NCBI RefSeq assembly: GCF_902726545.1
Contig: NZ_CACVAD010000005.1
Coordinates: 1 to 64,000 of the forward strand
Origin: Yersinia artesiana
GTDB lineage: Bacteria > Pseudomonadota > Gammaproteobacteria > Enterobacterales > Enterobacteriaceae
DNA length: 64,000 nt
Direction: 5' to 3'
The notes below the pieces were generated by a model, which saw nothing but the letters and a program-made list of their open reading frames with translations, did not search any database and was not told the origin of the DNA. Below are positions 1-37,864 of the stretch, piece after piece; position 1 is the first letter of the stretch, and every line of letters starts with the position of its first letter. Position numbers and translations under genes: made by a program.

Positions 1-128
1 ATGTTATTACTGCGTATTATAATTCCCGGTATTGGTTAATTAAAATTAATACCGCTTTCAGTAAAGTTAAGTGATTAATGACTGTTGTTTTTTAACTATT
101 AATCTACAGTAATATAATGGAGTTTTAT

Positions 129-1382
129 ATGAGTGAATTATTAGCATCAATTAAGTCATCAATTAAACCATCAATATCTAATCATATGCCTGCTATGCCG
201 CTTAGTCGAGGTTTTGAGCGATTACAACCTATAACACGGAGTTATATAAAAAATGACTGGAAGGTAAAAGATAAGACTGCATATAAAGGAAAAGAAATAG
301 TAAGGTCTGTTTTAACAGAAAGGAAAGTTATTAATAATATTGAAACAGTTAAAATTAAAACGTTTGACTCTGCTACTAATAAGATGAATCACATGACTGA
401 AGTATCTGACTTTAATAATAATGTGAAGACAGTTACTGTGGTGCAATATGACTATGATGCTGTTAATAAAAAAACCAGACAGGCTAATAGATTTGAGAAA
501 ACACAAGAGATTAAACCTCAAGAAATGAGAGAACACAAAAATATTAATGATAAATTAATACAGAAACACCAAGTTCTCGAGTCAAAAATATCTGACCAAG
601 GTTTTAAATTAAACAGTTCCCCACCAGATGCAAGCACACCTGTTCCTGCGGAAACCAGGGTGAAGAAGGAGTTATTAGACAGTAAGCCTAACAAGAAGTA
701 TGAACTTATTGATGGCGATCGTTTTTTAGTGACTAAAGACGGGCCTGTTGTTGATAACGGTAGTCGGGTTCAGGAGACACGAAGAGATAATAGTAGATTT
801 ATAGCTGACATTACCAGTAAATATCAGAATGGGAATATTACCTTGAAAACTGTAAGAGTACGAGAGGTTGACCCTGACACCAAAAAACATTCTGAGACTG
901 GAAAATATGAAACTCAATATATCTACGACTCTAGCAATAAGTTAGACCACACCTTTACTAAAAGTAAATTTTATGGCCCAGATAAAAAGCAAATTGGTCT
1001 TCGAGAGCAACGGGTTAAAAACGGGGAAATAATTTATGATGGTATATTGAGATATCACTCCGATGGGAGTAGTAGCTTTCTATTTCTTAATGGCGATGGT
1101 AACTATGAATATACTAATTGGGGTGCTGGTAAAGAGATCGGCCAACCATCATTGCGGCAGAGTTGGAGGGTTAGCAAGACGGGGCTCCCAATATCACCGC
1201 TTAACACTGATACCATTAACCAAAAAGCAACTCCGACTGCTGAGTATCCAGGCCAATTGGCAGATGCAATAAACAGTTTCCCTTCAAAAGAGATCAACCC
1301 TGCTCCTACGGATAAGATTATCAGTAGCCAAATATCCGAACGACTTAGGAACATTGTTCCCGATAGGAGATACCCTGTTTAG
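129..1382 (+). CDS. Hypothetical protein, AT-rich, cysteine-free
   Basis: I do not recognise this gene. The start at 129 is chosen because a GGAG sits six bases upstream; an in-frame ATG at 117 has no such site. The 417-residue product has no cysteine, no signal peptide and no membrane segment. It is rich in Lys, Asn, Ser and Thr. The first 30 residues are Ser/Ile-rich and lack acidic residues apart from one Glu, as in many type III secreted proteins, but that alone is weak evidence. A Lys/Thr/Asp-rich stretch around residues 60-110 loosely resembles another around 230-290, suggesting an internal duplication with beta-strand-like alternation. Base composition is clearly more AT-rich than ilvY and ilvC next door, which suggests recent acquisition. 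It ends 12 bp from the convergent ilvY stop and shares its terminator region. Confidence 0.7.
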   Translation: MSELLASIKSSIKPSISNHMPAMPLSRGFERLQPITRSYIKNDWKVKDKTAYKGKEIVRSVLTERKVINNIETVKIKTFDSATNKMNHMTEVSDFNNNVKTVTVVQYDYDAVNKKTRQANRFEKTQEIKPQEMREHKNINDKLIQKHQVLESKISDQGFKLNSSPPDASTPVPAETRVKKELLDSKPNKKYELIDGDRFLVTKDGPVVDNGSRVQETRRDNSRFIADITSKYQNGNITLKTVRVREVDPDTKKHSETGKYETQYIYDSSNKLDHTFTKSKFYGPDKKQIGLREQRVKNGEIIYDGILRYHSDGSSSFLFLNGDGNYEYTNWGAGKEIGQPSLRQSWRVSKTGLPISPLNTDTINQKATPTAEYPGQLADAINSFPSKEINPAPTDKIISSQISERLRNIVPDRRYPV

Positions 1383-2527: not shown

Positions 2528-4006
2528 ATGGCTAACTATTTCAACACATTGAACCTGCGTCAGCAGTTGGCGCAATTAGGTAAGTGTCGCTTTATGGCAC
2601 GAGATGAATTCGCCGATGAAGCAGGCTACCTGAAAGGTAAAAAAGTGGTGATTGTCGGCTGTGGCGCACAAGGCCTAAACCAGGGTTTGAACATGCGCGA
2701 TTCCGGCCTGGATGTAGCTTACGCCCTGCGTAAAGAAGCTATTGCCGAGAAGCGTGCCTCATGGCGTAAAGCGACCGAAAATGGTTTCAAAGTAGGCACT
2801 TACGAAGAACTGATCCCACAGGCTGATTTGGTTGTTAACCTGACGCCAGACAAACAGCATTCCGCAGTGGTTCAGGCGGTTCAGCCACTGATGAAAGATG
2901 GCGCAGCGCTGGGTTACTCTCACGGTTTCAATATCGTAGAAGTGGGTGAGCAAGTGCGTAAAGACATCACTGTAGTGATGGTTGCGCCAAAATGCCCTGG
3001 TACAGAAGTCCGTGAAGAATACAAACGTGGTTTTGGTGTGCCGACATTGATCGCGGTTCACCCGGAAAACGATCCTAAAGGCGAAGGCATGGCGATTGCC
3101 AAGGCTTGGGCGGCAGCCACCGGCGGTCACCGTGCTGGTGTGTTGGAATCCTCATTTGTTGCTGAAGTTAAATCAGACCTGATGGGCGAGCAAACTATCC
3201 TGTGTGGTATGTTGCAGGCCGGTTCACTGTTATGCTTCGACAAGCTGGTTTCTGAAGGTACTGACGCTGCTTATGCTGAGAAACTGATTCAATTCGGTTG
3301 GGAAACTATCACCGAAGCGCTGAAACAAGGCGGGATTACGCTGATGATGGACCGTTTGTCCAATCCGGCTAAACTGCGTGCTTATGCGTTGTCTGAGCAA
3401 CTGAAAGAGATCATGGCCCCACTGTTCCAGAAACATATGGATGACATTATCTCTGGTGAATTCTCCAGCGGGATGATGGCTGATTGGGCCAATGACGATA
3501 AGAAATTGCTGAACTGGCGTGAAGAGACCGGCAAAACTGCATTTGAGAACGCGCCACAGTTTGAAGGCAAAATCTCTGAGCAAGAATATTTCGACCACGG
3601 CGTGTTGATGATTGCCATGGTGAAAGCCGGTGTTGAGTTGGCATTCGAAACTATGGTTGATTCGGGCATCATTGAAGAATCGGCTTATTACGAATCTCTG
3701 CATGAATTGCCACTGATTGCCAACACCATTGCGCGTAAACGTTTATATGAAATGAACGTAGTTATCTCTGACACCGCAGAATACGGTAACTATCTGTTTG
3801 CTAATGCAGCCGTGCCATTGCTGAAAGCCAAGTTTATGGATTCCCTGCAAGCGGGTGATTTAGGTAAAAGTGTTGCCGGAACTGCGGTAGACAATGCCCA
3901 ACTGCGCGATGTAAACGAAGCTATTCGTAATCATCCAATTGAAGCTGTAGGCCATAAGCTGCGTGGCTATATGACCGATATGAAACGTATCGCAGTTGCC
4001 GGCTAA
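2528..4006 (+). CDS. ilvC: Ketol-acid reductoisomerase, class II
   Basis: NADPH- and Mg2+-dependent isomeroreductase for valine and isoleucine synthesis in the cytosol. It converts 2-acetolactate to 2,3-dihydroxyisovalerate and acts likewise on acetohydroxybutyrate. The 492-residue length is that of the long class II enterobacterial enzyme. The Rossmann glycine motif GCGAQG is at about residues 44-49. The C-terminal half is the duplicated knotted domain. The start [13 protein letters not shown] matches E. coli. It is transcribed away from ilvY and ends at a strong terminator. Confidence 0.98.
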
Positions 4007-4038
4007 TAATCGACTATAGTGTGTTACCTGATATTAAG

Positions 4039-4064
4039 GCCTCCCAGCAACGGGGGGCTTTTTT
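4039..4064 (+). terminator. ilvC terminator
   Basis: Stem GCCTCCC (4039-4045) pairs with GGGGGGC (4052-4058), followed by TTTTTT, 33 bp after the ilvC stop. Confidence 0.9.
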
Positions 4065-4326
4065 ATTTCAGATTAACTGCATTTCGATAAGGGAAATATT
4101 TCGTAAATTGATGCTATCACGGCCCGATAAAACTCTTGTAATGTGTTAATCGTGGTTAAATACCTCACCAATAATGTCTGCCTTTTTAATTTCTGAATCA
4201 CAAAACTATTTCGTTGATAATAAAAAGGCCTCGCTAATCAGTGAGGCCTTTTTATTTTATGAAATTACTGTGGCTGATGACAATTACATCATAAGAAGGA
4301 TTTTAAATATAAAAAGGAGAAAAGCG
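4065..4326. other. AT-rich spacer left of the bacteriocin scar
   Basis: No convincing gene is seen. The stretch is AT-rich and contains one near-symmetric terminator hairpin (4222-4255). It probably marks the left border of the accessory segment between ilvC and ppiC. Confidence 0.5.
4222..4255. terminator. Bidirectional terminator hairpin
   Basis: GGCCTC (4227-4232) pairs with GAGGCC (4243-4248). The stem is preceded by AAAAA and followed by TTTTTA, so it could stop transcription from either side. No intact gene abuts it. Confidence 0.7.
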
Positions 4327-4424
4327 ATGAGTGATATTCAAACTATTCTGGCCCGATGGGTGTTTTGGCCAGAGAGCATTCCCATCTTGATTATCCGCAT
4401 ATTGCCAATGGATTTAAGGGCTTG
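4327..4424 (+). pseudogene. Degenerate phage Q-type antiterminator fragment
   Basis: ATG at 4327 follows a good AAGGAG site and reads MSDIQTILARW. After a frame change around 4360-4370 the reading continues as ARE-HSHLDYPHIANGFKGL up to about 4424. The pattern MxDIQ..L.RW - WA - DYxxIAxGFKGL is that of the N-terminus of lambdoid Q-type antitermination proteins, as I recall the family. Only this N-terminal piece remains, it is frameshifted, and it runs directly into the bacteriocin DNase remnant. The family assignment comes from motif memory and has not been searched. Confidence 0.5.
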
Positions 4425-4426
4425 GT

Positions 4427-4705
4427 GGCAGGAAGTTCAGTAGTTTTGATAGATTCAGGGAAGCGTTTTGGCGGGCAGTGGCGAATGATCCAATTTTATC
4501 AAAATAGTTTAAATCGGGTAATTTAGGGAATATTAAGAATGGGAAGGCCCCATCATCTAGAAAAAGTGAGCGAGTAGGTGGTCGGGTAAAATATGAATTT
4601 CATCATGTGAAGCCTATCAGCAAAGATGGGGCCATTTATGACATTGACAATATTAGAGTATTAACGCCTAAAAGGCATATAGAAACTCATAAAGAGGTGA
4701 AATAA
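4427..4705 (+). pseudogene. Colicin/S-pyocin DNase (HNH) domain, 5'-truncated with a nonsense codon
   Basis: The frame reads GRKFSSFDRFREAFWRAVA, then NDPILSK, then TAG at 4505-4507, then a further 65 codons to TAA at 4703. This is the C-terminal DNase of E-type colicins and S-type pyocins. The catalytic HNH layout is intact: VGGR, then E two residues before HH, then 14 residues, N, 8 residues, H, 3 residues, H (compare E9 His102/103, Asn118, His127/131). The TAG stands where relatives have Gln after LSK, so one CAG-to-TAG change would explain it. The receptor-binding and translocation domains are absent. The stop is 1 nt from the immunity gene, the usual bacteriocin arrangement. Confidence 0.9.
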
Positions 4706-4706
4706 G

Positions 4707-5015
4707 ATGGAAGGAAAAACTATATCTGACTACACGGAGTCTGAATTTTTAGAATTAGTAAGGAAACTCTTTAATGTGGAAGATGCATCTGAAGAAGAAG
4801 ATATTCAAAACCTTCTTGAATTTGAGCGACTATGTGAACATCCAGATGGTACTGATATAATTTTTTACCCTAACTCTAATCAGGAGAATACTCCTGAACG
4901 GCTTGTTAAAGAAATAAATCATATCGCGAGTAATCATATAGACCGTCTCTTTGGGCGGTCTATATTGATAAGTTTTTTATTTCAGCTCGCGACTAAAAGG
5001 CTTACGGTTACCTAA
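4707..5015 (+). CDS. Colicin DNase immunity protein (Im2/Im9 family), altered C-terminus
   Basis: The product would bind and block the cognate colicin/pyocin DNase. Family hallmarks are SDYTESEFLELV (about residues 7-18), the acidic EEED segment, FERLCEHPDGTD, and the DIIFYP block that corresponds to the Tyr54-Tyr55 contact region of Im9. The start follows AGAGGTGA with good spacing, 1 nt after the DNase remnant. Homology stops near residue 75 (ASN). The usual short Gly-Lys-Pro-Gly-Phe-type end is missing. Translation instead runs through a hairpin (4936-4965) and overlaps the 3' end of the convergent fimbrial chaperone, giving 102 residues instead of about 85. The core may still fold, but function is uncertain. 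Confidence 0.85.
   Translation: MEGKTISDYTESEFLELVRKLFNVEDASEEEDIQNLLEFERLCEHPDGTDIIFYPNSNQENTPERLVKEINHIASNHIDRLFGRSILISFLFQLATKRLTVT
4936..4976 (+). terminator. Hairpin between immunity gene and fimbrial operon
   Basis: ATATAGACCG (4936-4945) pairs perfectly with CGGTCTATAT (4956-4965) around a 10-nt loop; TTTTTT follows at 4973. It lies inside the extended immunity reading frame. Confidence 0.65.
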
Positions 5016-5699
5016 ATCATCAATTAAAACAAAATTGACCGTTTTACTATCTGCTGTTGGGACGCGATTGAGGGGAAAGTCGAGCTTGGAAAAAGGGGCG
5101 ACCATATCTGGTAACCCTTCGGCCAGCCCCAATGTTAAAGAAGCGAGTGATGCATAATAAGGTGTTGGATTATCAACCCTAACCGAGGTGGTATTACCGT
5201 TGCGTTCTAAGGCAAAAGTTAATGCCTTGCCGACTGTATCCGCCGGTGCGGGTAAGTTTTTCGGGCGATAAAAGACTTTATATTGCATGCGCAAAGCCAG
5301 TGTAACGGAAGACTCATCATCAACTTTAGGTGTGGCTTTAGGCGGAATTTCGTAAACATTGAGCCAAAATGCAGATTCTCTATCCAGCGGCAATTTACTG
5401 GCACCGGATAAAATCAAACGCAGGCTGCGTTGAGCTTGTGGTTGTAATCGAAACAATGGTGGCAGCACTAATACCGGGGAAATCGCTTTCTCCGGCGTTG
5501 CCATCAAATCGCCATCATCCACCCACACCTGCACTGCCACCGGGTAGTCATTACTATTGACCAGTTGCAGTGACTCTTCTGTGCTACCCTCACTGAAAAT
5601 AATACGCGTTTTTTCTGCCACGACACTTGCCATCGCCGGCACACTACAGGCCATAAGAAGTGATAACAGCAAGCCATTGAAAGTGCGTTTGAAACGCAT
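4977..5699 (-). CDS. Periplasmic fimbrial chaperone (PapD/FimC family), distal gene
   Basis: Donor-strand chaperone for pilins. The start at 5699 overlaps the upstream termination site (TAATATG), implying translational coupling to the adhesin gene; an extended upstream frame would add residues already used by that gene. The 240-residue product has a signal peptide (about 1-24, ending PAMAS), the N-terminal Ig-like domain with TRIIF and the VQVWVDDG strand, RLILSG, and a C-terminal domain rich in hydrophobic strands (PYYASLASLTL). It is the second chaperone of the cluster and diverges from the first, so it may serve the adhesin specifically. Its 3' end overlaps the convergent immunity frame. 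Confidence 0.92.
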   Translation of the reverse strand: MRFKRTFNGLLLSLLMACSVPAMASVVAEKTRIIFSEGSTEESLQLVNSNDYPVAVQVWVDDGDLMATPEKAISPVLVLPPLFRLQPQAQRSLRLILSGASKLPLDRESAFWLNVYEIPPKATPKVDDESSVTLALRMQYKVFYRPKNLPAPADTVGKALTFALERNGNTTSVRVDNPTPYYASLASLTLGLAEGLPDMVAPFSKLDFPLNRVPTADSKTVNFVLIDDLGNRKPFSRELK

Positions 5700-5700
5700 A

Positions 5701-7080
5701 TTATTGAACACGGATAACCACTTGCGCATGTGCATTCACTGCTCCTGCCGTCACAGTTTGCCCGCTGATTTTGCTTAACTCAGCCCGAAAGTTCTCAGTG
5801 TAACTATTACCTCCGCTCACCGTGCCGGTTATTTCTTGTGCGCCCTGGAAGATGCCATACCAGCCGCCGTTATTACCGGTTTGGGTCACATTCTTTGAGA
5901 GTAGATATATCGGATTATTATTGCGGTAGATACGGATCCCCACGCCATTCGCCATTCCGGCGGCGCCATAATTATCTGATACTAAATGGCTAATGCCACC
6001 GCTACCATTCATTAAGCCCAAAGCCTGTGCCTTAGCGGCGTTTGCCGCGGGCACCAGAAAGCCCATTGCCACTGCACCAGCATTAACGCCGGAGGTAATA
6101 CCGGTCTGGCACTGGAAATCGACACTGAACTCCGCTGAGCTACTACTGCCACTGTTCAGTTCTGCCACAGAAATTCTGGGTAATATCACCGTTGGGGTAA
6201 AATTGGTGACTGCGCAAATGGTGGTACGGCGGAAAGTCACATAATTGTACAACCCAATTGAGGCAGGCCAGGTCGAATACCAACCGGGCCAGTTTGATAC
6301 CGAGTCGGTTCCTTCAACAGGGCCGCTAATGCCCGGCCCTTTAAAGGCGATATAGGCATTGGGCTGAGTATAGGCATAGGTATAAGATGCTGCGTTGTTG
6401 GTACCGGAGCGGGCATAATCAATACGAAATAGTTCAGTATACAGATTACTGAAATTCTTAGCTTTGACCAAAATACGACCAGTGCTGTCAGTATCTAATC
6501 CGGTTAAACGGCGTCCTTTCCATAAACGTGAGTAATACTCGCCGGTGGACAGGTTGGTTAGTCTGATAACCACATTGCGGACATAAGTTGCAAAGCCGGA
6601 GGGAACATTGCCAGCAATCGCACCATCTTCATTTTTGCCGCCATAGTCATTATCCCCGTTAGTGGCATACATTTCAAAGAGTTGGTCAACATCGGCCGCT
6701 GCACAGCGGAATAGCACCCGCTCAGGGTCATAGCCGGTATTCAGGGCAAAAGTGGTAAAGTCGGATGTCGCTGCGGCTAATAATGTTCCGTCAGGTTGGA
6801 AATTGGCTGCGGTGCTGAGGTCAATAACACCCGGCAAGCCGAGTGACCCATTATTGTTATCCAGAGAACCAGACCACGCGCTGGCCGTACCATCGCCCGC
6901 ACTTAGCTGACTTTGCGCGGTAATTCGGGTACAAGCTGACCATGCTGAGGTACTAAATAACCCGATCAACAGCATCGCCCCCGCCACAATATATGGACGA
7001 CGGGAATAAACAGGCATTGTTGGCCGCGAGACTTCGCAAGATATTAACTGCTCTGTTGGTCTTAACATTATTTTTCTCAT
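5701..7080 (-). CDS. Fimbrial adhesin / tip subunit
   Basis: A large pilin-like protein of about 459 residues, far longer than the major pilin, placed after the usher as tip adhesins usually are. An N-terminal hydrophobic segment ends in TSAWSACTRI, a likely signal peptide with the cleavage site just before the Cys. The C-terminal third (from about residue 310, SGSSSSAEFSVDFQCQT) resembles a pilin domain, ending in alternating hydrophobics and VVIRVQ for donor-strand exchange. The start is uncertain: ATG 7080 lies 5 bp from the usher stop without a clear ribosome site; ATG 7068 or ATG 7017, which gives the shortest signal peptide, are alternatives. The receptor cannot be told from the sequence. 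Confidence 0.85.
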   Translation of the reverse strand: MRKIMLRPTEQLISCEVSRPTMPVYSRRPYIVAGAMLLIGLFSTSAWSACTRITAQSQLSAGDGTASAWSGSLDNNNGSLGLPGVIDLSTAANFQPDGTLLAAATSDFTTFALNTGYDPERVLFRCAAADVDQLFEMYATNGDNDYGGKNEDGAIAGNVPSGFATYVRNVVIRLTNLSTGEYYSRLWKGRRLTGLDTDSTGRILVKAKNFSNLYTELFRIDYARSGTNNAASYTYAYTQPNAYIAFKGPGISGPVEGTDSVSNWPGWYSTWPASIGLYNYVTFRRTTICAVTNFTPTVILPRISVAELNSGSSSSAEFSVDFQCQTGITSGVNAGAVAMGFLVPAANAAKAQALGLMNGSGGISHLVSDNYGAAGMANGVGIRIYRNNNPIYLLSKNVTQTGNNGGWYGIFQGAQEITGTVSGGNSYTENFRAELSKISGQTVTAGAVNAHAQVVIRVQ

Positions 7081-7085
7081 AATGG

Positions 7086-9758
7086 TTAACGGCGGCAACT
7101 GCCTGTTATATGGATAATATCTTGCTCAGTATCCTGGCTGGCAAAATCATAAGGTAATTCACATTGCTCGTTGCTATTTTCACCCCAGCGAACATAAAGC
7201 GAATTTTTTTTATCTTTCACGCGAGCATAGATTTGATTGCCCTGACCCACCATACCGACCAGTTCATTTTTATTGTTATAAACATCTGCGCCCAGTGGTA
7301 ATCCCTCTCCGCTAGCTGCTTGGGTTTGAATTAATACCGCATAGCCAGTCAATGTTTCGAATTTCACTCTCACTGCGGCCCCAGCATAAGGAACAACACG
7401 ACCTTGATTTTCTTTCAACTCGGTATTGCGATTAATGCCTTTGGTGTCTAAACCGACCGTATTGTAATTATAAGGTGTTAATGAAGGCACCAGCGCAAAA
7501 CCGTTATTATCAATCCTGGCACCTTGTGCATTTCGTACTGTCGCGCCCTGAGCACCATCGGCTTCAATTAAACCGAAAGTATCGCCCAAATAAGGCCCCA
7601 GAGTGACCCCCTTACTGTGTATTACAGCGGCCCCGCGAGCACCTGCGCCATATTGGGTATAGTTATTACCGCGAGAATAACTACCATTGACAGTGGCATT
7701 AGGGAATTGCTTTTGCACATTCGCGCCCCAACTATTTGAGCTACCACTGATATTACTATCGTCATAACCCGCATTGACTGAATAATTTAAAGTATTACGT
7801 TCACCGGCGGTGCCTGATAACGACGTCTGATAGTTATTGCCGCTTTTCGGATTCCGGTTAGCAGACATGGATAAATATTGATTCCCGCCGCCAATATTCA
7901 GTGGAATAGACACCGTTAACGACGCGATATTTTCGGTATCGCCATAGCGCGCTGTTGTCATTGTTTCATCAGTATCATCTCCCTCCCAGCCAAATTGGGT
8001 GGAGGTATAAACAGTGCGCTGGCGACTGATTGCCACGTTGTAGCTGATATCCCGATAACTATTTGAATAATTTAGCTGTAACTGTGTATCTCGCTGTGTA
8101 TCGTTATAATAATCACTGGTCGATGCTGAGGCCGAAAGTTGTCCATAACCACCCAGAGTTTGGTTGATTGTGGTGGTAAATTGGCTACGCTGTTTATAAG
8201 TCGATGAATCCCAGGTTCCGCCATTCTTTTCTACTGAACGCACACCAAATACATCATTTAAATCACGATACCCTTTAGTCGAATAGCGATATCCGGCCAG
8301 TGAGAATGAGGTGCCGGTTTCATTAAATGTTTGGCTATAGGTGGCCTGCATCCGCCAACCATCTTGAGTTTGATTATCTTCAACTTTGGCATGGGAATAG
8401 GTGGTATTAAGACCAAACGCACCGATCGGCGTACCTAAAACGCCCCCAACAAGTAATGCCGTATAGTCTTGTGCTAAACGTATACCACTGTTGGCAGTTA
8501 ACTGATTGGTGAGGCCACGCTCATAAGTAAAATCAGTGAAATAGCTGTCAATATTGGTGAAATCACGAGATTCCCCAACGACGGCATTATATCGGCTCAC
8601 GCCCGGACGCATTGAATCTGGCACCGCACTAAATGGAACCGTAAATGTTGAACGGCTGCCATTGGCCTCTATAACTTCAACATTAAGATCGCCCTGACTG
8701 GTGGTGCTGTATAAATCGTTAATAACAAATGGGCCGGGGGCGACGTTGGTTTCATAAATTTCACGTCCGTTCTGGCTAATAATTACTCGTGCGTTGCTGG
8801 TGGCAACACCACGCACTTCAGGCGCAAAACCACGCATTGATTCTGGCCACATACGTTGGTCTGTCGCCATTTTTACGCCGCGAAATGACATGGTGCCGAA
8901 TAATGTACTGTCGGTGAAGGTTTCACCCAGCGTTAATTCGCTGTCTAGTTGTGAAATAGGACGCTGCACATAAGTGCGAATATTATTCCATTGGGTATCG
9001 CTATAACTATCGTTGCTGGAATAACTCACGTTTGATTGCTGGCGTAATTGCCATAACCCTAAATTGAGGCCACTTTTTAGGCCAACAAAGCCGTAGTCAG
9101 AAGTACTGTTTTGCTGGGATTGTGTATCACTACGATAAAAGTTTGCGCTGTAGTTAACGAATGCGAGTTTTTCACCTTCCTGCCATTCACTGCGCTCAAT
9201 ATAACCCCGAGGACGTTTTTGTAATAATGCCTGGGGAATAGAAAGCTCCAGGCGCAATTTGGCCTGATCAAAATGAAAAGACGCGCCTTTTACTCGCTCC
9301 GCCAACGGCATACATTGCTCCGTTGACGAGGTAGTATTATCAGCTGAATCTGAGGGGGCTGATTCGAGCTGTGCAGCATTAGGTTCTGTAGGCGTAGTGT
9401 TATTTTTGTTGGCTAACTCAATACCAGCAGCAGTTAAGAACTCATCACTCAGGCAGGGATAAACCTCCGGTGAATCGGCATTTTTAATAAATTTAATTGT
9501 GGTGCGTTTGTATAATTTGTTATTAATCAGAACATCTACAGCATCAAAATTTCCGGGCGTGACAGAATCCTCTTTATTCAGTTGATTCAACCCGGAGGCA
9601 AATTTTGTTCCTAAAAAGAGGGACTCATCAAATTCAAGATCCTGCGATTCTTCCTGAGCGAAAACAGTATCTACAGGTAAAACTAAAGTCATACACAGTG
9701 TTAATGCTTTTTTACGGCCAGAGAACTTCTTTTTCAGAACCACTTGTGCAAGCCCCAT
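7086..9758 (-). CDS. Outer-membrane fimbrial usher (PapC/FimD family)
   Basis: Forms the outer-membrane pore that orders pilin assembly and secretes the fibre. At 890 residues it is the usual size. Order of parts: signal peptide (about 1-35, ending VFAQ), N-terminal chaperone-subunit binding domain (FDESLFLG..., VDVLINN), a 24-strand barrel rich in Tyr/Asn/Ser, a plug region around GPFVINDLYSTTSQGDLNVEV, and C-terminal domains with the VVPYAGAAVRVKFET block and the terminal Cys pair. GAAGG seven bases upstream supports ATG 9758. The stop is 5 bp before the adhesin ATG. Confidence 0.97.
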   Translation of the reverse strand: MGLAQVVLKKKFSGRKKALTLCMTLVLPVDTVFAQEESQDLEFDESLFLGTKFASGLNQLNKEDSVTPGNFDAVDVLINNKLYKRTTIKFIKNADSPEVYPCLSDEFLTAAGIELANKNNTTPTEPNAAQLESAPSDSADNTTSSTEQCMPLAERVKGASFHFDQAKLRLELSIPQALLQKRPRGYIERSEWQEGEKLAFVNYSANFYRSDTQSQQNSTSDYGFVGLKSGLNLGLWQLRQQSNVSYSSNDSYSDTQWNNIRTYVQRPISQLDSELTLGETFTDSTLFGTMSFRGVKMATDQRMWPESMRGFAPEVRGVATSNARVIISQNGREIYETNVAPGPFVINDLYSTTSQGDLNVEVIEANGSRSTFTVPFSAVPDSMRPGVSRYNAVVGESRDFTNIDSYFTDFTYERGLTNQLTANSGIRLAQDYTALLVGGVLGTPIGAFGLNTTYSHAKVEDNQTQDGWRMQATYSQTFNETGTSFSLAGYRYSTKGYRDLNDVFGVRSVEKNGGTWDSSTYKQRSQFTTTINQTLGGYGQLSASASTSDYYNDTQRDTQLQLNYSNSYRDISYNVAISRQRTVYTSTQFGWEGDDTDETMTTARYGDTENIASLTVSIPLNIGGGNQYLSMSANRNPKSGNNYQTSLSGTAGERNTLNYSVNAGYDDSNISGSSNSWGANVQKQFPNATVNGSYSRGNNYTQYGAGARGAAVIHSKGVTLGPYLGDTFGLIEADGAQGATVRNAQGARIDNNGFALVPSLTPYNYNTVGLDTKGINRNTELKENQGRVVPYAGAAVRVKFETLTGYAVLIQTQAASGEGLPLGADVYNNKNELVGMVGQGNQIYARVKDKKNSLYVRWGENSNEQCELPYDFASQDTEQDIIHITGSCRR

Positions 9759-9782
9759 AAATATACCTTCGCCGGAAAGCCA

Positions 9783-10511
9783 TTACTGAATTTTATAGCT
9801 ACCGCTATCTTGCCCACCAAAATCATTAACTAACAGAAAGTTAACAATAGCATTTGCAGGTACGGATGAATTTGGAATAACCCATTGAATTTGAGACATT
9901 GGTGGGATCATCTCTGATTTCATTTTGAGTTTTTTTCCACTCCCAATGATTTCACCACTGGCAATGGTGGCATAGAACCCCGTTGGGTTTTTACCTGTTA
10001 CAACAACATCTTTGCCTTGCTGACTTACATTAAAAGTCAGTGCGCCAGAAACCTGGTCAACCCGACCCGCAATATTTTCTGGACGATAAAAGACTTTAAT
10101 ACGATTACGCATCAAAACGAGCATTTTATTATTTTTTTCTGCTTTATTAACGGGGGGAACCTGTAAAAAATTAAGGTAGAACACCGACTCTCTATCCGTT
10201 GGCAAACCACTACCGGTATATTTTAACCGTAATGTTTGGCCCGCATTCGCTTCAATACGGAAGAAAGGAGGAGTAACAATAAAGGGTGCTTTACCTGTTT
10301 CCGGTGTTGACTGAGCATCACCACTGTCTAACCAAACCTGAACCGCATTAGGAAAATTATCTTTATTTGTTAATTGGACGCTATGCTCTTTTTCACCTGC
10401 CGAATATACAATGCGGCTGCCGCTCATTACTACGCTGGCATTGGCAAAAGATATACCCATAAGAATTAATAAAGTAACAAGCAGGAAACGGTAGCTATTT
10501 ATATTAAGCAT
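9783..10511 (-). CDS. Periplasmic fimbrial chaperone (PapD/FimC family), proximal gene
   Basis: Caps and folds the major pilin before delivery to the usher. The 242-residue product has a signal peptide (about 1-26, ending FANAS). The Ig-like N-terminal domain includes SRIVYSAGEKEHSVQLTN, VQVWLDSGD, the PPFFRIEA block and LPTDRESVFYLN; the C-terminal domain includes NPTGFYATI. It lies between the major pilin and the usher, 24 bp from the usher start. The paralogue at the distal end of the operon shares the same motifs but is clearly diverged. Confidence 0.95.
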   Translation of the reverse strand: MLNINSYRFLLVTLLILMGISFANASVVMSGSRIVYSAGEKEHSVQLTNKDNFPNAVQVWLDSGDAQSTPETGKAPFIVTPPFFRIEANAGQTLRLKYTGSGLPTDRESVFYLNFLQVPPVNKAEKNNKMLVLMRNRIKVFYRPENIAGRVDQVSGALTFNVSQQGKDVVVTGKNPTGFYATIASGEIIGSGKKLKMKSEMIPPMSQIQWVIPNSSVPANAIVNFLLVNDFGGQDSGSYKIQ

Positions 10512-10577
10512 GATGGGTATATCCTCTGAAGGGAACTGGCAGAAATAGTTATATCTCTCGTACTTGAAGCTATAGGG

Positions 10578-10595
10578 GGTGGTGTATTCACCACC
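10578..10595 (-). terminator. Intercistronic hairpin after the major pilin gene
   Basis: GGTGGTG (10578-10584) pairs with CACCACC (10589-10595) around a 4-nt loop, between the pilin stop and the chaperone start. There is no long T-tract on either strand. It could stabilise the pilin transcript 3' end or partly terminate, lowering expression of the downstream assembly genes. The flanking TACTTGAAGCTATAGGGG resembles an ERIC-like repeat end. Confidence 0.45.
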
Positions 10596-10645
10596 GACCT
10601 ACAACCTCAATTACTTTGAGTATACTCTATACTACGATACTGATA

Positions 10646-11176
10646 TTACAGGTAAGAAACTGCATATTGTACAGAAGCGATCACAGAACCAGGGCCTGCT
10701 TGACCGGTTGCGAAATACTGAACCGCAAAATCATGCTCTGCTGATGTATCGCCAGCTTTCAATACGATGCCATCTTGTGCTACACCACTATTCAGATCGA
10801 TACCGGTTGTTGTGGTTGCATCTTTCAGTAATTGCAGTTCAACATTTGCTGCTGTACCGGTATTCTTTAAGTTGCCAGCAGTTGTTACCTGGTTACCAAC
10901 GAAAACAGTTTTTATATCAATATCAGAAGCACCAGTTGCGCAACCTGAGACACCCAGAGTAAAGGTTGTTTTGCCTGCAGTTTTACCTGAAGCATTTAAA
11001 TCGCCACTTGAAACGGTTGGCAATAATACCATTGGGTTTGCATCAAGGCCGTTAACGGTAACAGAACAAGTCTGAGCGGTGACTTCCCCTTGGAAAGTAA
11101 TTGTATTATTGCTTGCTGCCATTGCTACGGTTGTAGATGCTGCGAATAATGCCATAGCCAAAGTAATCTTATTCAT
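10646..11176 (-). CDS. Major fimbrial subunit (type 1 pilin family)
   Basis: Structural pilin of the chaperone-usher fibre. The 176-residue product has a signal peptide (about 1-21, AMAA|SNN). The conserved Cys pair is at 37 and 79. The mature N-terminal extension (NTITFQGEVTAQTCSV) supplies the donor strand, and the C-terminus carries the alternating hydrophobic SVQYAVSYL with the penultimate Tyr. GGAG six bases upstream fixes the ATG at 11176. It is the first gene of the operon, with a long AT-rich upstream region. Confidence 0.96.
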   Translation of the reverse strand: MNKITLAMALFAASTTVAMAASNNTITFQGEVTAQTCSVTVNGLDANPMVLLPTVSSGDLNASGKTAGKTTFTLGVSGCATGASDIDIKTVFVGNQVTTAGNLKNTGTAANVELQLLKDATTTTGIDLNSGVAQDGIVLKAGDTSAEHDFAVQYFATGQAGPGSVIASVQYAVSYL

Positions 11177-11793
11177 TTAAAACTCCAATATAATAATTAG
11201 AAATTAGCTAAATTCTCGTTCACGTTTAAATACGGAGGAGTAATTAACTTAATAAATATGAAGTGGGTTAATGACTATATGTGCGAATGTTATTCGGTTA
11301 TACTCGTCAGCTTTCCACATGTTCTTTCATTAAAGTAAGGAGGTGGTCGTTATTTCGTTCACGTCCGTTACTTGATGAGGAGATAATATAGAAAGTAACT
11401 TTTACTGCACATAGGACAAACAAACCAATGTTTGTGGGAAAGTTCCTACTGGGTATCTAATTTAAATGAAATCAATGTAACTCATTGTATTTAAATATAT
11501 TTTATTTTCTATAAAAGTAAGCTAATGAGATCTTTCTTGTTGTTTTTATTGAAAAACTAATTTTTCCCCTGTTCGGGTGCATTGCAGTAGGGTTTGTTAA
11601 TGTTATTTAATGTGTGATTTGTAAAGTTAAGTTGGTATTTTGTATAGATGTAACTAACGATAGATTGAGGACTCAAAATATTAATTGGGATTTTCTGAAA
11701 ATTGATTATTTTTCAAGATACATTGCATTAACGATAAATTGGATAATAGAGAGGGAGTATTTTGCGCCGCCAGTGAGGTGGCGCATGAAGAAC
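11177..11793. other. Fimbrial operon upstream region
   Basis: A 617-bp AT-rich stretch between the pilin start and ppiC, with no convincing gene. It should hold the fimbrial promoter (minus strand). I see no long inverted repeats of a phase-switch type, and no recombinase gene is adjacent. A hairpin near ppiC lies at 11763-11785. Confidence 0.6.
11763..11785 (-). terminator. Hairpin downstream of ppiC
   Basis: TGCGCCGCC (11763-11771) pairs with GGTGGCGCA (11777-11785), with one G-T pair, just beyond the ppiC stop. There is no clear T-tract in either direction, so its terminator role is tentative. Confidence 0.5.
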
Positions 11794-12075
11794 TTAATTA
11801 CGGTATAACACTTTAATAATGTGGTAACCGAATTGAGTTTTTACCGGGCCATAAGGTTGCAGTAGTTCGCAGCTGAATACGGCTTTATCGAATGCCGGAA
11901 CCATATCCCCTTTATTAAACTCACCCAGATCGCCGCCATTACGTTTTGACGGGCAGTTAGAGAACTTTTTCGCTAACTCTTGGAAATTTGCGCCGTTATT
12001 CAACTGCGCCAGAATATCGTTTGCCTGCTTTTCATCATCAACCAGGATGTGCAGTGCAGAAGCTTTGTTTGCCAT
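11794..12075 (-). CDS. ppiC: Peptidyl-prolyl cis-trans isomerase C (parvulin)
   Basis: Small cytosolic prolyl isomerase. The 93-residue product is a single parvulin domain: ASALHILV, the [14 protein letters not shown] block, [11 protein letters not shown] and the GYHIIKVL end are typical. ATG 12075 gives the same MANKA-type start and length as E. coli PpiC; the open frame upstream of it is not needed. It is divergent from rep, as in E. coli. Confidence 0.96.
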
Positions 12076-12289
12076 AGTAACAATCACCACCAATTTATTG
12101 GGTAGGGTTATTTGAACGAAGATTATCTTCAAGGGAGCCTTGAAGCGCGCCAGTGTAACGTATTTTGGTCGTGATGGGGCCACGCGGGTCAACGTTTTAC
12201 AAATCAAAAGGTGCCTGCGGGTTTTTTGTCATCAGTCGCTTTCTGCTACAATCCTGTTCCCCCGTCTACCTACTGAGCTTTCGAGTGTT

Positions 12290-14314
12290 ATGCGATTAAA
12301 TCCCAGCCAACAACAAGCCGTCGAATTTGTCACCGGACCCTGCCTGGTGTTGGCCGGTGCGGGTTCGGGCAAAACCCGCGTCATCACCAATAAGATTGCG
12401 CATTTGATCCGCCAATGTGGCTATCAGCCAAAACATATTGCTGCGGTAACCTTTACCAATAAAGCCGCGCGTGAAATGAAAGAACGTGTGGCCCAGACGT
12501 TGGGGCGCAAAGAAGCACGGGGTTTGATGATTGCGACGTTCCATACTCTGGGGCTGGAAATCATCAAAAAAGAGTACAAAGCGCTGGGGATGAAATCCAA
12601 TTTCTCCCTGTTTGATGCGCAAGACCAACTGGGTCTGTTGAAAGATCTGACCCATAAGTGGTTGGAAGACGATAAAACCTTACTGCAGCAGTTGATATCC
12701 CAGATCTCAAACTGGAAAAATGATCTTCTCGATCCTGCCGCCGCCGCGGCGCTGGCCCGATCCGAGCGCGATAAGTTGTTCGTCCATTGCTATGGCTTAT
12801 ATGACGCACATTTAAAAGCGTGCAATGTATTGGATTTCGATGATCTCATTTCATTGCCCACCTTATTGCTGCAAAACAATTTGGAAGTGCGTGAACGCTG
12901 GCAAAACCGGCTGCGTTATCTATTAGTGGATGAATACCAAGACACCAATACCAGTCAGTACCAAATGGTTAAACTGTTGGTGGGTAGTCGGGCGCGCTTT
13001 ACCGTGGTCGGTGATGACGACCAATCCATCTATTCATGGCGTGGTGCGCGGCCACAGAATTTAGTCTTGTTGAATGAAGATTTCCCACAATTGCAAGTGA
13101 TCAAGCTGGAGCAAAACTACCGCTCTTCGGGCCGTATTTTGAAAGCGGCCAATATCTTGATTGCCAATAACTCGCATGTTTTTGAAAAAAAGCTCTTTTC
13201 TGAGTTGGAATATGGCGATGAGCTGAAAGTGATTACCGCCAATAATGAAGATCATGAAGCTGAAAGGGTGGTCGGTGAGCTTATCGCCCACCATTTTGTG
13301 AAAAAAACGCAATACAGCGACTATGCTATTTTGTATCGCGGCAATCACCAGTCACGGCTGTTTGAAAAGCTGCTGATGCAAAACCGTATCCCTTATCGTA
13401 TCTCCGGCGGGGATTCGTTTTTCTCCCGCCCGGAGATCAAAGACTTACTGGCTTATTTGCGTGTATTGACCAATCAGGATGATGACAGCGCATTCTTACG
13501 TATCGTGAATACCCCAAAGCGCGAGATAGGTTCTGCGACGATTCAAAAATTGGGTGAATGGGCTAATGTGCGTAATAAAAGTCTGTTTCGTGCCAGTTTT
13601 GATTTAGGGCTGGGCGAGCATCTGAAGGGGCGTGGTCTGGAGTCATTACAGCGTTTCACTTATTGGATGGATGGCATTATTCGCTTAGTGGAACGCGAGC
13701 CGATAGCGGCAGTGCGAGATTTGATTCACGGTATCGATTATGAAAGCTGGTTGTTCGAAACTTCTCCCAGCCCGAAAGCGGCTGAAATGCGGATGAAGAA
13801 CGTCAATTTATTATTCAGTTGGATGACTGAAATGTTGGAAGGGTCAGAGCTGAATGAACCGATGACGCTGACTCAGGTTGTCACGCGTTTTACCCTGCGC
13901 GATATGATGGAGCGCGGGGAAAGTGATGAAGAGCTGGATCAAGTTCAACTGATGACTCTACATGCTTCAAAGGGGCTGGAATTCCCGTATGTATTTTTGG
14001 TTGGCATGGAAGAAGGTTTATTGCCCCATCAAAGCAGTATTGATGAAGACAATGTAGATGAAGAGCGGCGGCTGGCCTATGTGGGGATCACCCGCGCTCA
14101 GCGCGAACTGTTTTTCACCTTATGCAAAGAGCGGCGGCAGTATGGTGAGCTGATTCGGCCAGAACCCAGCCGTTTCCTGATGGAGTTACCGCAGGATGAT
14201 TTGAAATGGGAAAATGAGCGCAAAGCCGTTAGCCCGGAAGAACGGATGCAAAAAGGCCAGAGTCACCTGGCCAATATTCGAGCGCAATTAGCGAATGCTA
14301 AAAAGCCACAGTGA
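12290..14314 (+). CDS. rep: ATP-dependent DNA helicase Rep
   Basis: 3'-to-5' superfamily 1 helicase that clears proteins ahead of the replication fork. The start [11 protein letters not shown] gives 674 residues, one more than E. coli Rep (673); the frame is open further upstream, but that part does not look coding. Walker A GAGSGKT is at about 23-29. Other helicase motifs follow: [58 protein letters not shown] and VGITRAQ. A hairpin without a T-tract (14333-14357) separates it from convergent pehX. Confidence 0.98.
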
Positions 14315-19139: not shown

Positions 19140-19257
19140 AGTGTGGTAGAATATCAGCTAACTATTGCTTTACGAAAGCGTATCCGGTGAAATAAAGTCA
19201 TCCTATTGTTGGTTAATGCTACACCAACGAGGTAGACACAATCCTTTGGAGTAGAAC

Positions 19258-19584
19258 ATGAGCGATAAAATTATTCACCTGAGTGACGACAGCTTCGACA
19301 CTGACGTGCTGAAAGCCAGCGGCCTGGTTCTGGTCGATTTCTGGGCTGAATGGTGTGGTCCGTGCAAGATGATTGCTCCGATTTTGGATGAAATTGCTGA
19401 AGAGTATGAAGGCAGACTGACTATCACTAAATTGAATATTGATGACAACCAGGGCACGGCACCAAAATACGGTATCCGTGGCATCCCTACGCTGTTGTTG
19501 TTCCGTGATGGTGAAGTTGTGGCAACCAAGGTTGGTGCCTTGTCTAAGGGTCAGCTTAAAGAATTCTTGGATGCGAATCTGTAA
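19258..19584 (+). CDS. trxA: Thioredoxin 1
   Basis: Cytosolic dithiol reductant for ribonucleotide reductase and others. The 108-residue product has the redox site WCGPC (Cys33 and Cys36), the cis-Pro loop [11 protein letters not shown] and a C-terminal amphipathic helix. TTGGAG precedes the ATG. It lies upstream of rho, as in E. coli. Confidence 0.99.
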
Positions 19585-37640: not shown

Positions 37641-37864
37641 GTAGATGCTCATCCCACTTATTATGACAGCCTGGTTTTTATAGCCAATTTAGCTTCATAA
37701 ACCCAGGGATGATGCAGAGCCGATTTTAGGGTGCCTATTGTCCATGTAAACGATGTTGAATATCTTCATCACATACCGGGCATAACGTTGAGTGAGGCAC
37801 CGACATTGTTGTCTGTAGACCTGAAAATTTCAGACGCTTGCCCTTATCGGCAAGCGTTTTTTTT
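37641..37864 (+). ncRNA. glmZ: Small RNA GlmZ
   Basis: Hfq-dependent small RNA that activates glmS (glucosamine-6-phosphate synthase) translation and is controlled by RapZ and the decoy GlmY. The 5' end GTAGATGCTCAT, the GATGCAGAGCCG block, the ACGTTGAGTGAGGCACC block and the position next to hemY match E. coli GlmZ. It ends in a strong terminator: ACGCTTGCC paired with GGCAAGCGT, then eight T residues (37834-37864). Confidence 0.93.

What the first reader, a model, noticed from the sequence alone, without database searches (positions are those of the whole stretch)
4427..4935. Bacteriocin scar: nonsense-interrupted DNase toxin domain with its immunity gene still open
The HNH DNase end of a colicin/S-pyocin is intact in all catalytic positions except for one TAG where relatives have Gln. 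Its receptor and translocation domains are missing, but the Im2/Im9-type immunity frame next to it is open. Retention of an orphan immunity gene could protect against DNase bacteriocins of neighbours, or the whole cassette may be recent debris. A reverted codon would give a free cytoplasmic DNase domain with its antidote.
Basis: partly seen in the sequence, partly recalled or inferred. Interest (0 to 1): 0.7.

Follow-up and report, generated by a model that had tools for sequence, protein, structure and literature searches.

The report
Wreck of a Yersinia bacteriocin locus
A short stretch beside a housekeeping gene is the deletion-scarred remains of a DNA-cutting bacteriocin and its antidote gene, and in some related bacteria the same site holds rows of spare toxin-antidote units that appear to be swapped into a working toxin.

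Summary
Window 4425-4702 is the C-terminal part of a colicin/pyocin HNH DNase (PF21431) broken by an in-frame stop, followed by an Im2/Im9-type immunity frame. Three corrections matter. (1) The DNase also lacks its first 33 profile positions, has no usable start codon, and is joined out of frame to the start of a phage-type antiterminator Q gene, with a 9-bp overlap at the junction. (2) The immunity frame is open only because a second deletion shifted its frame: the C-terminal end kept by 28 of 29 relatives is replaced by about 31 residues read from non-coding DNA. (3) No toxin body was found elsewhere in the genome. Both partners are damaged: best read as debris, not an armed reserve. The site, between ilvC and a fimbrial chaperone gene, is a Yersinia bacteriocin hotspot: 14 of 25 genomes (the window's included) hold immunity copies, and several hold rows of DNase-immunity cassettes, mostly without a start codon, between two conserved anchors. 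In one genome two nearly identical toxins diverge just past the 5' anchor, as cassette exchange predicts. The scar is of a known kind (P. aeruginosa PAO1 has one like it); the cassette locus is the interesting part.

The parts
2528..4006 (+). ilvC, left border of the hotspot
   Evidence: ORF 492 aa; 97.6-99.8% identical IlvC in 18 of 20 fetched relative loci
4036..4061 (+). terminator-like hairpin after ilvC
   Evidence: z -4.55 for 4030-4075
4219..4256 (+). strong hairpin that looks like a terminator; lies inside the 4106-4257 segment that recurs several times in the locus of G004
   Evidence: fold z -8.56 for 4210-4262; not listed by the terminator scan; recurrence at about 71-75% identity
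4327..4433 (+). 5' remnant of an antiterminator Q-like gene, frameshifted
   Evidence: 4280-4436 is 95% identical over 158 columns to Y. proxima G018, whose Q there is 121 aa; PF06530 on the window piece alone is below cut-off, E 0.079; full Q in G004 is PF06530, E 1.4e-35
4425..4433 (+). junction 1: GTGGCAGGA, where the Q side and the DNase side overlap
4425..4504 (+). DNase remnant, first piece
   Evidence: PF21431 34-61, E 6.5e-08
4505..4507 (+). in-frame stop inside the DNase remnant
4508..4705 (+). DNase remnant, second piece with the HNH motif and its own stop
   Evidence: PF21431 63-124, E 7.3e-21; colicin E2 DNase E 1.5e-21
4707..4918 (+). native part of the immunity gene
   Evidence: PF01320 3-71/82; Im2 E 1e-21
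4909..4918 (+). junction 2: overlap of 8-10 bp (AAGAAATAAA) between immunity codons about 68-71 and an immunity 3' end like that of Y. proxima
4919..5015 (+). frameshifted tail of the immunity ORF, running over the downstream hairpin and the 3' end of the opposing chaperone gene
   Evidence: the same out-of-frame reading is present behind the immunity genes of G018 and G001
4936..4965 (+). hairpin that follows the last immunity gene in G018, G001 and G006
   Evidence: z -5.39 for 4935-4975; not listed by the terminator scan
4977..5735 (-). fimbrial chaperone gene, right border of the hotspot
   Evidence: 76-97% identical protein in 18 of 20 fetched relative loci, and in named Yersinia records

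Best explanation
This is the decayed remainder of a chromosomal colicin-type DNase bacteriocin locus at a Yersinia hotspot (ilvC to fimbrial chaperone). Shown by sequence: an upstream Q-like gene is cut after about codon 35 and joined, with a 9-bp overlap, to the DNase domain inside the conserved 5' anchor; the rest of Q, the DNase N-terminus and any receptor/translocation part are absent. The DNase remnant has a stop, and the immunity gene has lost its 3' end at a second junction with an 8-10 bp overlap, which shifts its frame. Inferred: both deletions arose between short direct repeats, the pair is no longer made as a working toxin-antidote unit, and it persists because too little time has passed to erase it. 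In relatives the same locus works as a bacteriocin with a store of mostly silent DNase-immunity cassettes (inferred from cassette structure and from one clear exchange between two toxin copies).
For: Domain pieces and immunity. One DNase and one immunity match and no Pyocin_S match in the genome (a toxin-body query also found nothing, but had no control). Junction 1 and junction 2. The immunity end is kept in 28 of 29 other immunity frames of the genus and lost here and in G001. Relatives with toxin, immunity and cassettes at the same place, and 4 near-empty sites of 56-236 bp. The second DNase piece is 86% identical to the end of a 940-codon open toxin frame in G011. Low dN/dS against G011 (0.12 second DNase piece, 0.21 immunity) fits recent decay of once-selected genes.
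Against: No conspecific genome could be compared, so the age and order of the events are unknown. The low dN/dS would also fit an immunity gene still under selection. The exact 9-bp repeat is in no Q gene of the 17 relative intervals scanned (nearest: ATGGCAGGA in G006, GTAGCGGGA in Y. proxima); it occurs only in DNase/cassette anchors of G011 and G007, so the Q-side repeat in the ancestor is inferred. In junction 2 the left-hand relatives share 6-8 of the 10 overlap bases. Structure prediction of the shortened immunity protein could not be run.
Confidence: 0.85

Rival explanations
1. The immunity gene is a retained, working orphan that protects the cell against DNase bacteriocins of neighbours; the altered tail is tolerated.
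For: RBS-like GAGGTG before the ATG; the conserved Glu of helix II and most of the helix III epitope are kept by alignment with Im2; dN/dS 0.21 against G011 and 0.09 against G023; precedent: the orphan S6-type immunity gene of P. aeruginosa PAO1, behind a 250-nt toxin remnant, was shown to neutralise (PMC4905994, passages).
Against: Loss of the W...FK end kept in 28 of 29 relatives; the equivalent Trp75 of Im7 lies in helix IV on the face of core residues (PMC2833379, passages); the frame runs over a hairpin and an opposing gene; promoter-like sites in 4000-5050 are at chance level (4 against a mean of 3.8).
Confidence: 0.12
2. A sub-question within the best explanation, compatible with it: the DNase-immunity pair was not the end of an expressed toxin in this lineage but a silent cassette of the kind seen in relatives, and the deletion removed the toxin in front of it.
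For: In most longer cassettes the DNase homology starts at positions 14-27, near the 34 seen here; cassettes of the same DNase type occur in G024 and G017.
Against: The same DNase type is the end of toxins with a body in G011 and G023; the deletion erased the evidence that would decide.
Confidence: 0.4
3. Assembly or sequencing error over an intact toxin gene.
For: Draft genome in 111 contigs; reads were not available.
Against: Two junctions, a stop and a frameshift in Q agree with decay; no Pyocin_S domain in the genome; other reduced copies at the same site in G001 and G005.
Confidence: 0.03

Closest known systems
Colicin E2/E9 and pyocin S2/AP41 DNase-immunity pairs (PF21431, PF01320)
   Same: Same DNase and immunity families, same gene order
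   Different: DNase lacks the first 33 profile positions, has a stop and no usable start; immunity lacks its C-terminal end
Orphan S6-type immunity gene with 3' toxin remnant in P. aeruginosa PAO1 (PMC4905994)
   Same: Chromosomal bacteriocin site with the toxin reduced to a short 3' remnant and an immunity gene left behind
   Different: There the immunity gene is called intact and was shown to neutralise; here it is frameshifted at its end, and the toxin is a DNase, not an rRNase
Group IV chromosomal nuclease bacteriocins of Yersinia (PMC5536347)
   Same: The toxins of the relatives (Cloacin-type N-terminus, Pyocin_S, DNase end) appear to be this group; not tested against its sequences
   Different: The words ilvC, orphan and antiterminat do not occur in its main text; I saw passages only
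Orphan cdiA-CT/cdiI modules of CDI systems (PMC3150448)
   Same: Rows of toxin ends, most without translation start signals, with immunity genes behind a full-length toxin, sharing a conserved 5' anchor
   Different: CdiA is a cell-surface two-partner system with the VENN anchor; here the toxin is a colicin-type bacteriocin and, in G004, there is also a conserved 3' anchor at the end of the immunity gene

Membership tests
Colicin/pyocin HNH DNase (PF21431) | Sequence match over the curated cut-off | tested here: met
   33.2 and 75.1 bits for the two pieces, cut-off 27
Colicin/pyocin HNH DNase (PF21431) | Complete domain in one open frame | tested here: not met
   Profile 1-33 missing, stop after position 61
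Nuclease bacteriocin (functional gene) | Receptor and translocation domains upstream | tested here: not met
   Q remnant upstream instead; no Pyocin_S in the genome, control rang in E. coli
Im2/Im9-type immunity (PF01320) | Sequence match over the curated cut-off | tested here: met
   78.8 bits, cut-off 21.2
Im2/Im9-type immunity (PF01320) | Native C-terminal end including the conserved helix IV Trp | tested here: not met
   Present in 28 of 29 other immunity frames of the genus, absent here
Im2/Im9-type immunity (PF01320) | Binds and inhibits a cognate DNase | not testable with these tools
   Needs a bench assay
Orphan toxin-immunity cassette (CDI-like) | Toxin end without start codon, followed by an immunity gene, near a homologous full-length toxin | tested here: inconclusive
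   No start before DNase position 53 in the window, but no full-length toxin found in this genome; met in relatives such as G004
Group IV Yersinia nuclease bacteriocins | Sequence membership of the relatives' toxins in that group | not tested

The most novel reading that the evidence does not exclude
The ilvC-chaperone site of Yersinia is a colicin-type polymorphic-toxin locus: a Cloacin/Pyocin_S-bodied bacteriocin, tied to a phage-type Q antiterminator gene, that renews its killing domain and immunity gene together from a tandem store of silent cassettes by recombination between a roughly 115-bp 5' anchor inside the DNase domain and a roughly 40-bp 3' anchor at the end of the immunity gene. 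The 5' anchor also admits an unrelated killing domain. The window is a strain in which that system collapsed.
Probability: 0.6. Interest if true: 0.55.

Novelty: new member of a known kind. Interest (0 to 1): 0.35.

Why it matters
The scar itself shows how a bacteriocin locus dies, with one break inside the 5' anchor and the other removing the 3' anchor, the two stretches that seem to serve cassette exchange in relatives. The wider locus offers a natural record of how diffusible colicin-type toxins may change specificity, a process described for contact-dependent and Rhs toxins; the two toxin copies of G004 that part company just past the anchor make the exchange model directly testable by comparing strains.

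Tried and rejected
Considered and rejected: (a) an intact DNase awaiting one codon change (N-terminal part and start missing); (b) a gene with a near copy in sequenced phages: window 4290-5000 has no match in the phage collection, although the Q gene is of phage type; (c) SOS control by a LexA box: none near consensus in the 18 intervals scanned (G017 and G023 not scanned), which does not exclude other SOS control; (d) a second toxin elsewhere in the genome.

Led nowhere or limited: structure prediction of the shortened immunity protein was asked for eight times and the machine was busy each time. In one search the rows that involve G017, G018, G001 or G024 are void because minus-strand loci were not turned; only rows among WIN, G011, G023 and G006 were used. 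The conserved-column count was blurred by 4 out-of-frame ORFs in its alignment and is not used; the immunity end was counted from the same alignment after dropping those 4 ORFs and the window. Paper searches listed no paper that I recognised as describing cassettes at the Yersinia ilvC site; many hits were not listed or opened, so this is no proof of absence.

Full report
WHAT IS THERE. The window lies at the start of contig 5 of a 4.4-Mb draft genome in 111 contigs. The same-genus set holds 25 genomes, the window's included. Between ilvC (2528-4006) and a fimbrial chaperone gene on the other strand (4977-5735) lie about 0.97 kb. The frame 4425-4504 / 4508-4702 gives two pieces of a colicin/pyocin DNase separated by a TAG; the next frame is an Im2-like immunity protein. 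The matches are far above chance (E 7.3e-21 and 3.2e-22).

WHAT IS BROKEN. First, the DNase lacks profile positions 1-33, and no ATG, GTG or TTG precedes position 53 in its frame. Second, upstream of it stands not a toxin body but the first 30% or so of a Q-type antiterminator gene: 4280-4436 is 95% identical to Y. proxima G018, whose Q there is 121 aa. A full relative in G004 is PF06530 with E 1.4e-35; the window piece alone does not reach the cut-off (E 0.079). Q and DNase meet at GTGGCAGGA. G011 and G007 carry these nine bases inside the DNase/cassette anchors; no relative's Q gene carries them exactly, the nearest being ATGGCAGGA in G006 and GTAGCGGGA in Y. proxima. Third, the immunity frame runs to 5012 only because of a second junction at about 4909-4918: from there on the window matches the 3' end of Y. 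proxima's last immunity gene and the DNA behind it (96% over 4905-4979), in another frame. The resulting tail is an out-of-frame reading that also exists behind the immunity genes of G018 and G001. Of 29 other immunity frames in the genus (30 matches, one of them the window), 28 keep the W...FK end; the exception, G001, has a shifted end too.

THE LOCUS IN RELATIVES. 14 of 25 genomes hold an immunity relative and 11 of 25 a relative of the second DNase piece, the window's genome counted in both. All 30 immunity matches fall between the two borders or, in the genomes split over contigs, on a contig that carries one border (G017 C5, G023 C38) or toxin sequence only (G023 C1, 3.5 kb). Eighteen intervals, the window's included, could be measured from border to border; they range from 56 bp to 13.9 kb. 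Seven genomes were not measured: G017 and G023 are split, and G003, G008, G016, G021 and G022 were not fetched as intervals; these five have no immunity or DNase match. G009, G013, G014 and G020 are near-empty (56-236 bp). G005 (359 bp) keeps only a Q remnant, G001 (883 bp) an immunity gene with a shifted end, and G012 a Q gene with other DNA, so decay here is not rare. The toxins examined by Pfam (G004, G011) have a Cloacin-type N-terminal part, Pyocin_S and a complete DNase end. The toxin of G018 ends differently, with another kind of immunity gene behind it; that this is an rRNase with an Im3-like partner is recalled, not searched. Several relatives' toxins are themselves split over frames (G006, G007, G010). 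A near-complete Q gene is present in 11 of 11 relative loci that hold a toxin body or DNase on a contig with the chaperone border, and in none of the 4 near-empty ones; G023 is split and not counted, and in G001, with immunity only, no Q protein was found. G004 and G002 also carry a pair of small genes that I read as Rz/Rz1: the second is LysC-like (PF23793, E 5.4e-11 in G004), the first has no convincing Pfam match. That these genes cooperate is inferred.

SILENT CASSETTES. G004 carries two toxin genes and five DNase-immunity units (one DNase frame broken) with a period of about 895 bp. Aligning the seven units gives 84-99% mean identity over the first 120 columns, 41-72% over the middle and 89-96% over the last 43 columns: a 5' anchor within the DNase, a variable killing/immunity part, and a 3' anchor at the immunity end. 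The two toxin copies are nearly identical over about 2.6 kb (2 mismatches between 2001 and 3094 of the interval) and then diverge from 3095-3106 on, about 90-100 bp after the anchor begins, regaining similarity near the end of the immunity gene. Sixteen DNase frames without a toxin body were examined besides the window's: 10 of 16 have no ATG, GTG or TTG before DNase position 53 (two of these are short fragments that begin at positions 77 and 91), and 6 of 16 have one earlier. So 'silent' holds for most, not all. In G011 and G007 a further cassette carries the same anchor in front of an unrelated domain, and another begins with a Pyocin_S end (20.9 bits, below the cut-off) before an unrelated domain. 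This matches, in design, the orphan cdiA-CT/cdiI modules of CDI systems (PMC3150448, passages) and the general account of polymorphic toxins (PMC3482391, passages).

HOW IT MOST LIKELY WORKS. In relatives: a released bacteriocin whose DNase end and immunity gene can be replaced together by homologous recombination between the anchors (inferred; the G004 pair is the best evidence). In the window: nothing works any more, or at most a poorly folded immunity protein is made (inferred). Im7's Trp75 sits in helix IV on the same face as Ile68 and Ile72, whose replacement by Phe disrupts folding (PMC2833379, passages); the window lacks the equivalent Trp. Against this, the conserved Glu of helix II and most of the helix III epitope are kept (PMC4548480, passages), dN/dS against G011 is low (0.21), and PAO1 shows that an orphan immunity gene behind a toxin remnant can protect (PMC4905994, passages). 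Hence debris at 0.85, working orphan at 0.12.

NOVELTY. Toxin and immunity families, chromosomal Yersinia nuclease bacteriocins (PMC5536347, passages) and bacteriocin scars are known. I recognised no account of the cassette store at the ilvC site in the papers listed by my searches, nearly all seen only as listings. In the order at large the DNase is rare (13 of 394 genomes, the window's included), and so is the immunity family (12 of 394, likewise); some of those copies are partial as well (for example G408: DNase profile 84-124 only, with an immunity match over 3-82). An Arsenophonus plasmid carries a comparable row of HNH ends and immunity genes.

Noticed in passing
window 117-1382 (+): A 421-codon ORF before ilvY with no Pfam or NCBIfam match over cut-off. 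Of 24 other Yersinia genomes, 3 match its first ~130 and last ~40 residues and 1 its last ~40 only, in frames of other lengths, so the middle seems to vary.
   Followed up: partly
L093 5978-7656 (G011) and the matching part of L104 (G007): Two further toxin-immunity-like cassettes whose presumed killing domains have no Pfam match beyond the anchor or a weak Pyocin_S end.
   Followed up: partly
L092 15313-15850 (G004) and the matching part of L105 (G002): Rz/Rz1-like pair of small genes at the end of the bacteriocin locus; only the second has a Pfam match over cut-off.
   Followed up: partly
L099 (G015), interval 7756-13827: A frame of about 2,000 codons inserted in the same hotspot; not examined.
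   Followed up: no
L094 (G006), interval 69-921: An inserted stretch between ilvC and Q whose ORFs look like a broken transposase (recalled resemblance, not searched); the toxin there is split too.
   Followed up: no
L151 (Arsenophonus apicola plasmid) and L150 (Yersinia frederiksenii plasmid): L151 has a row of annotated HNH ends and immunity genes; L150 has one annotated HNH-immunity pair, and its record 3 places similar to the window's immunity.
   Followed up: partly
window 19200-19287 and 37641-37863: TrxA 5' UTR thermometer (RF02773, 111 bits) and GlmZ (RF00083, 209 bits).
   Followed up: no
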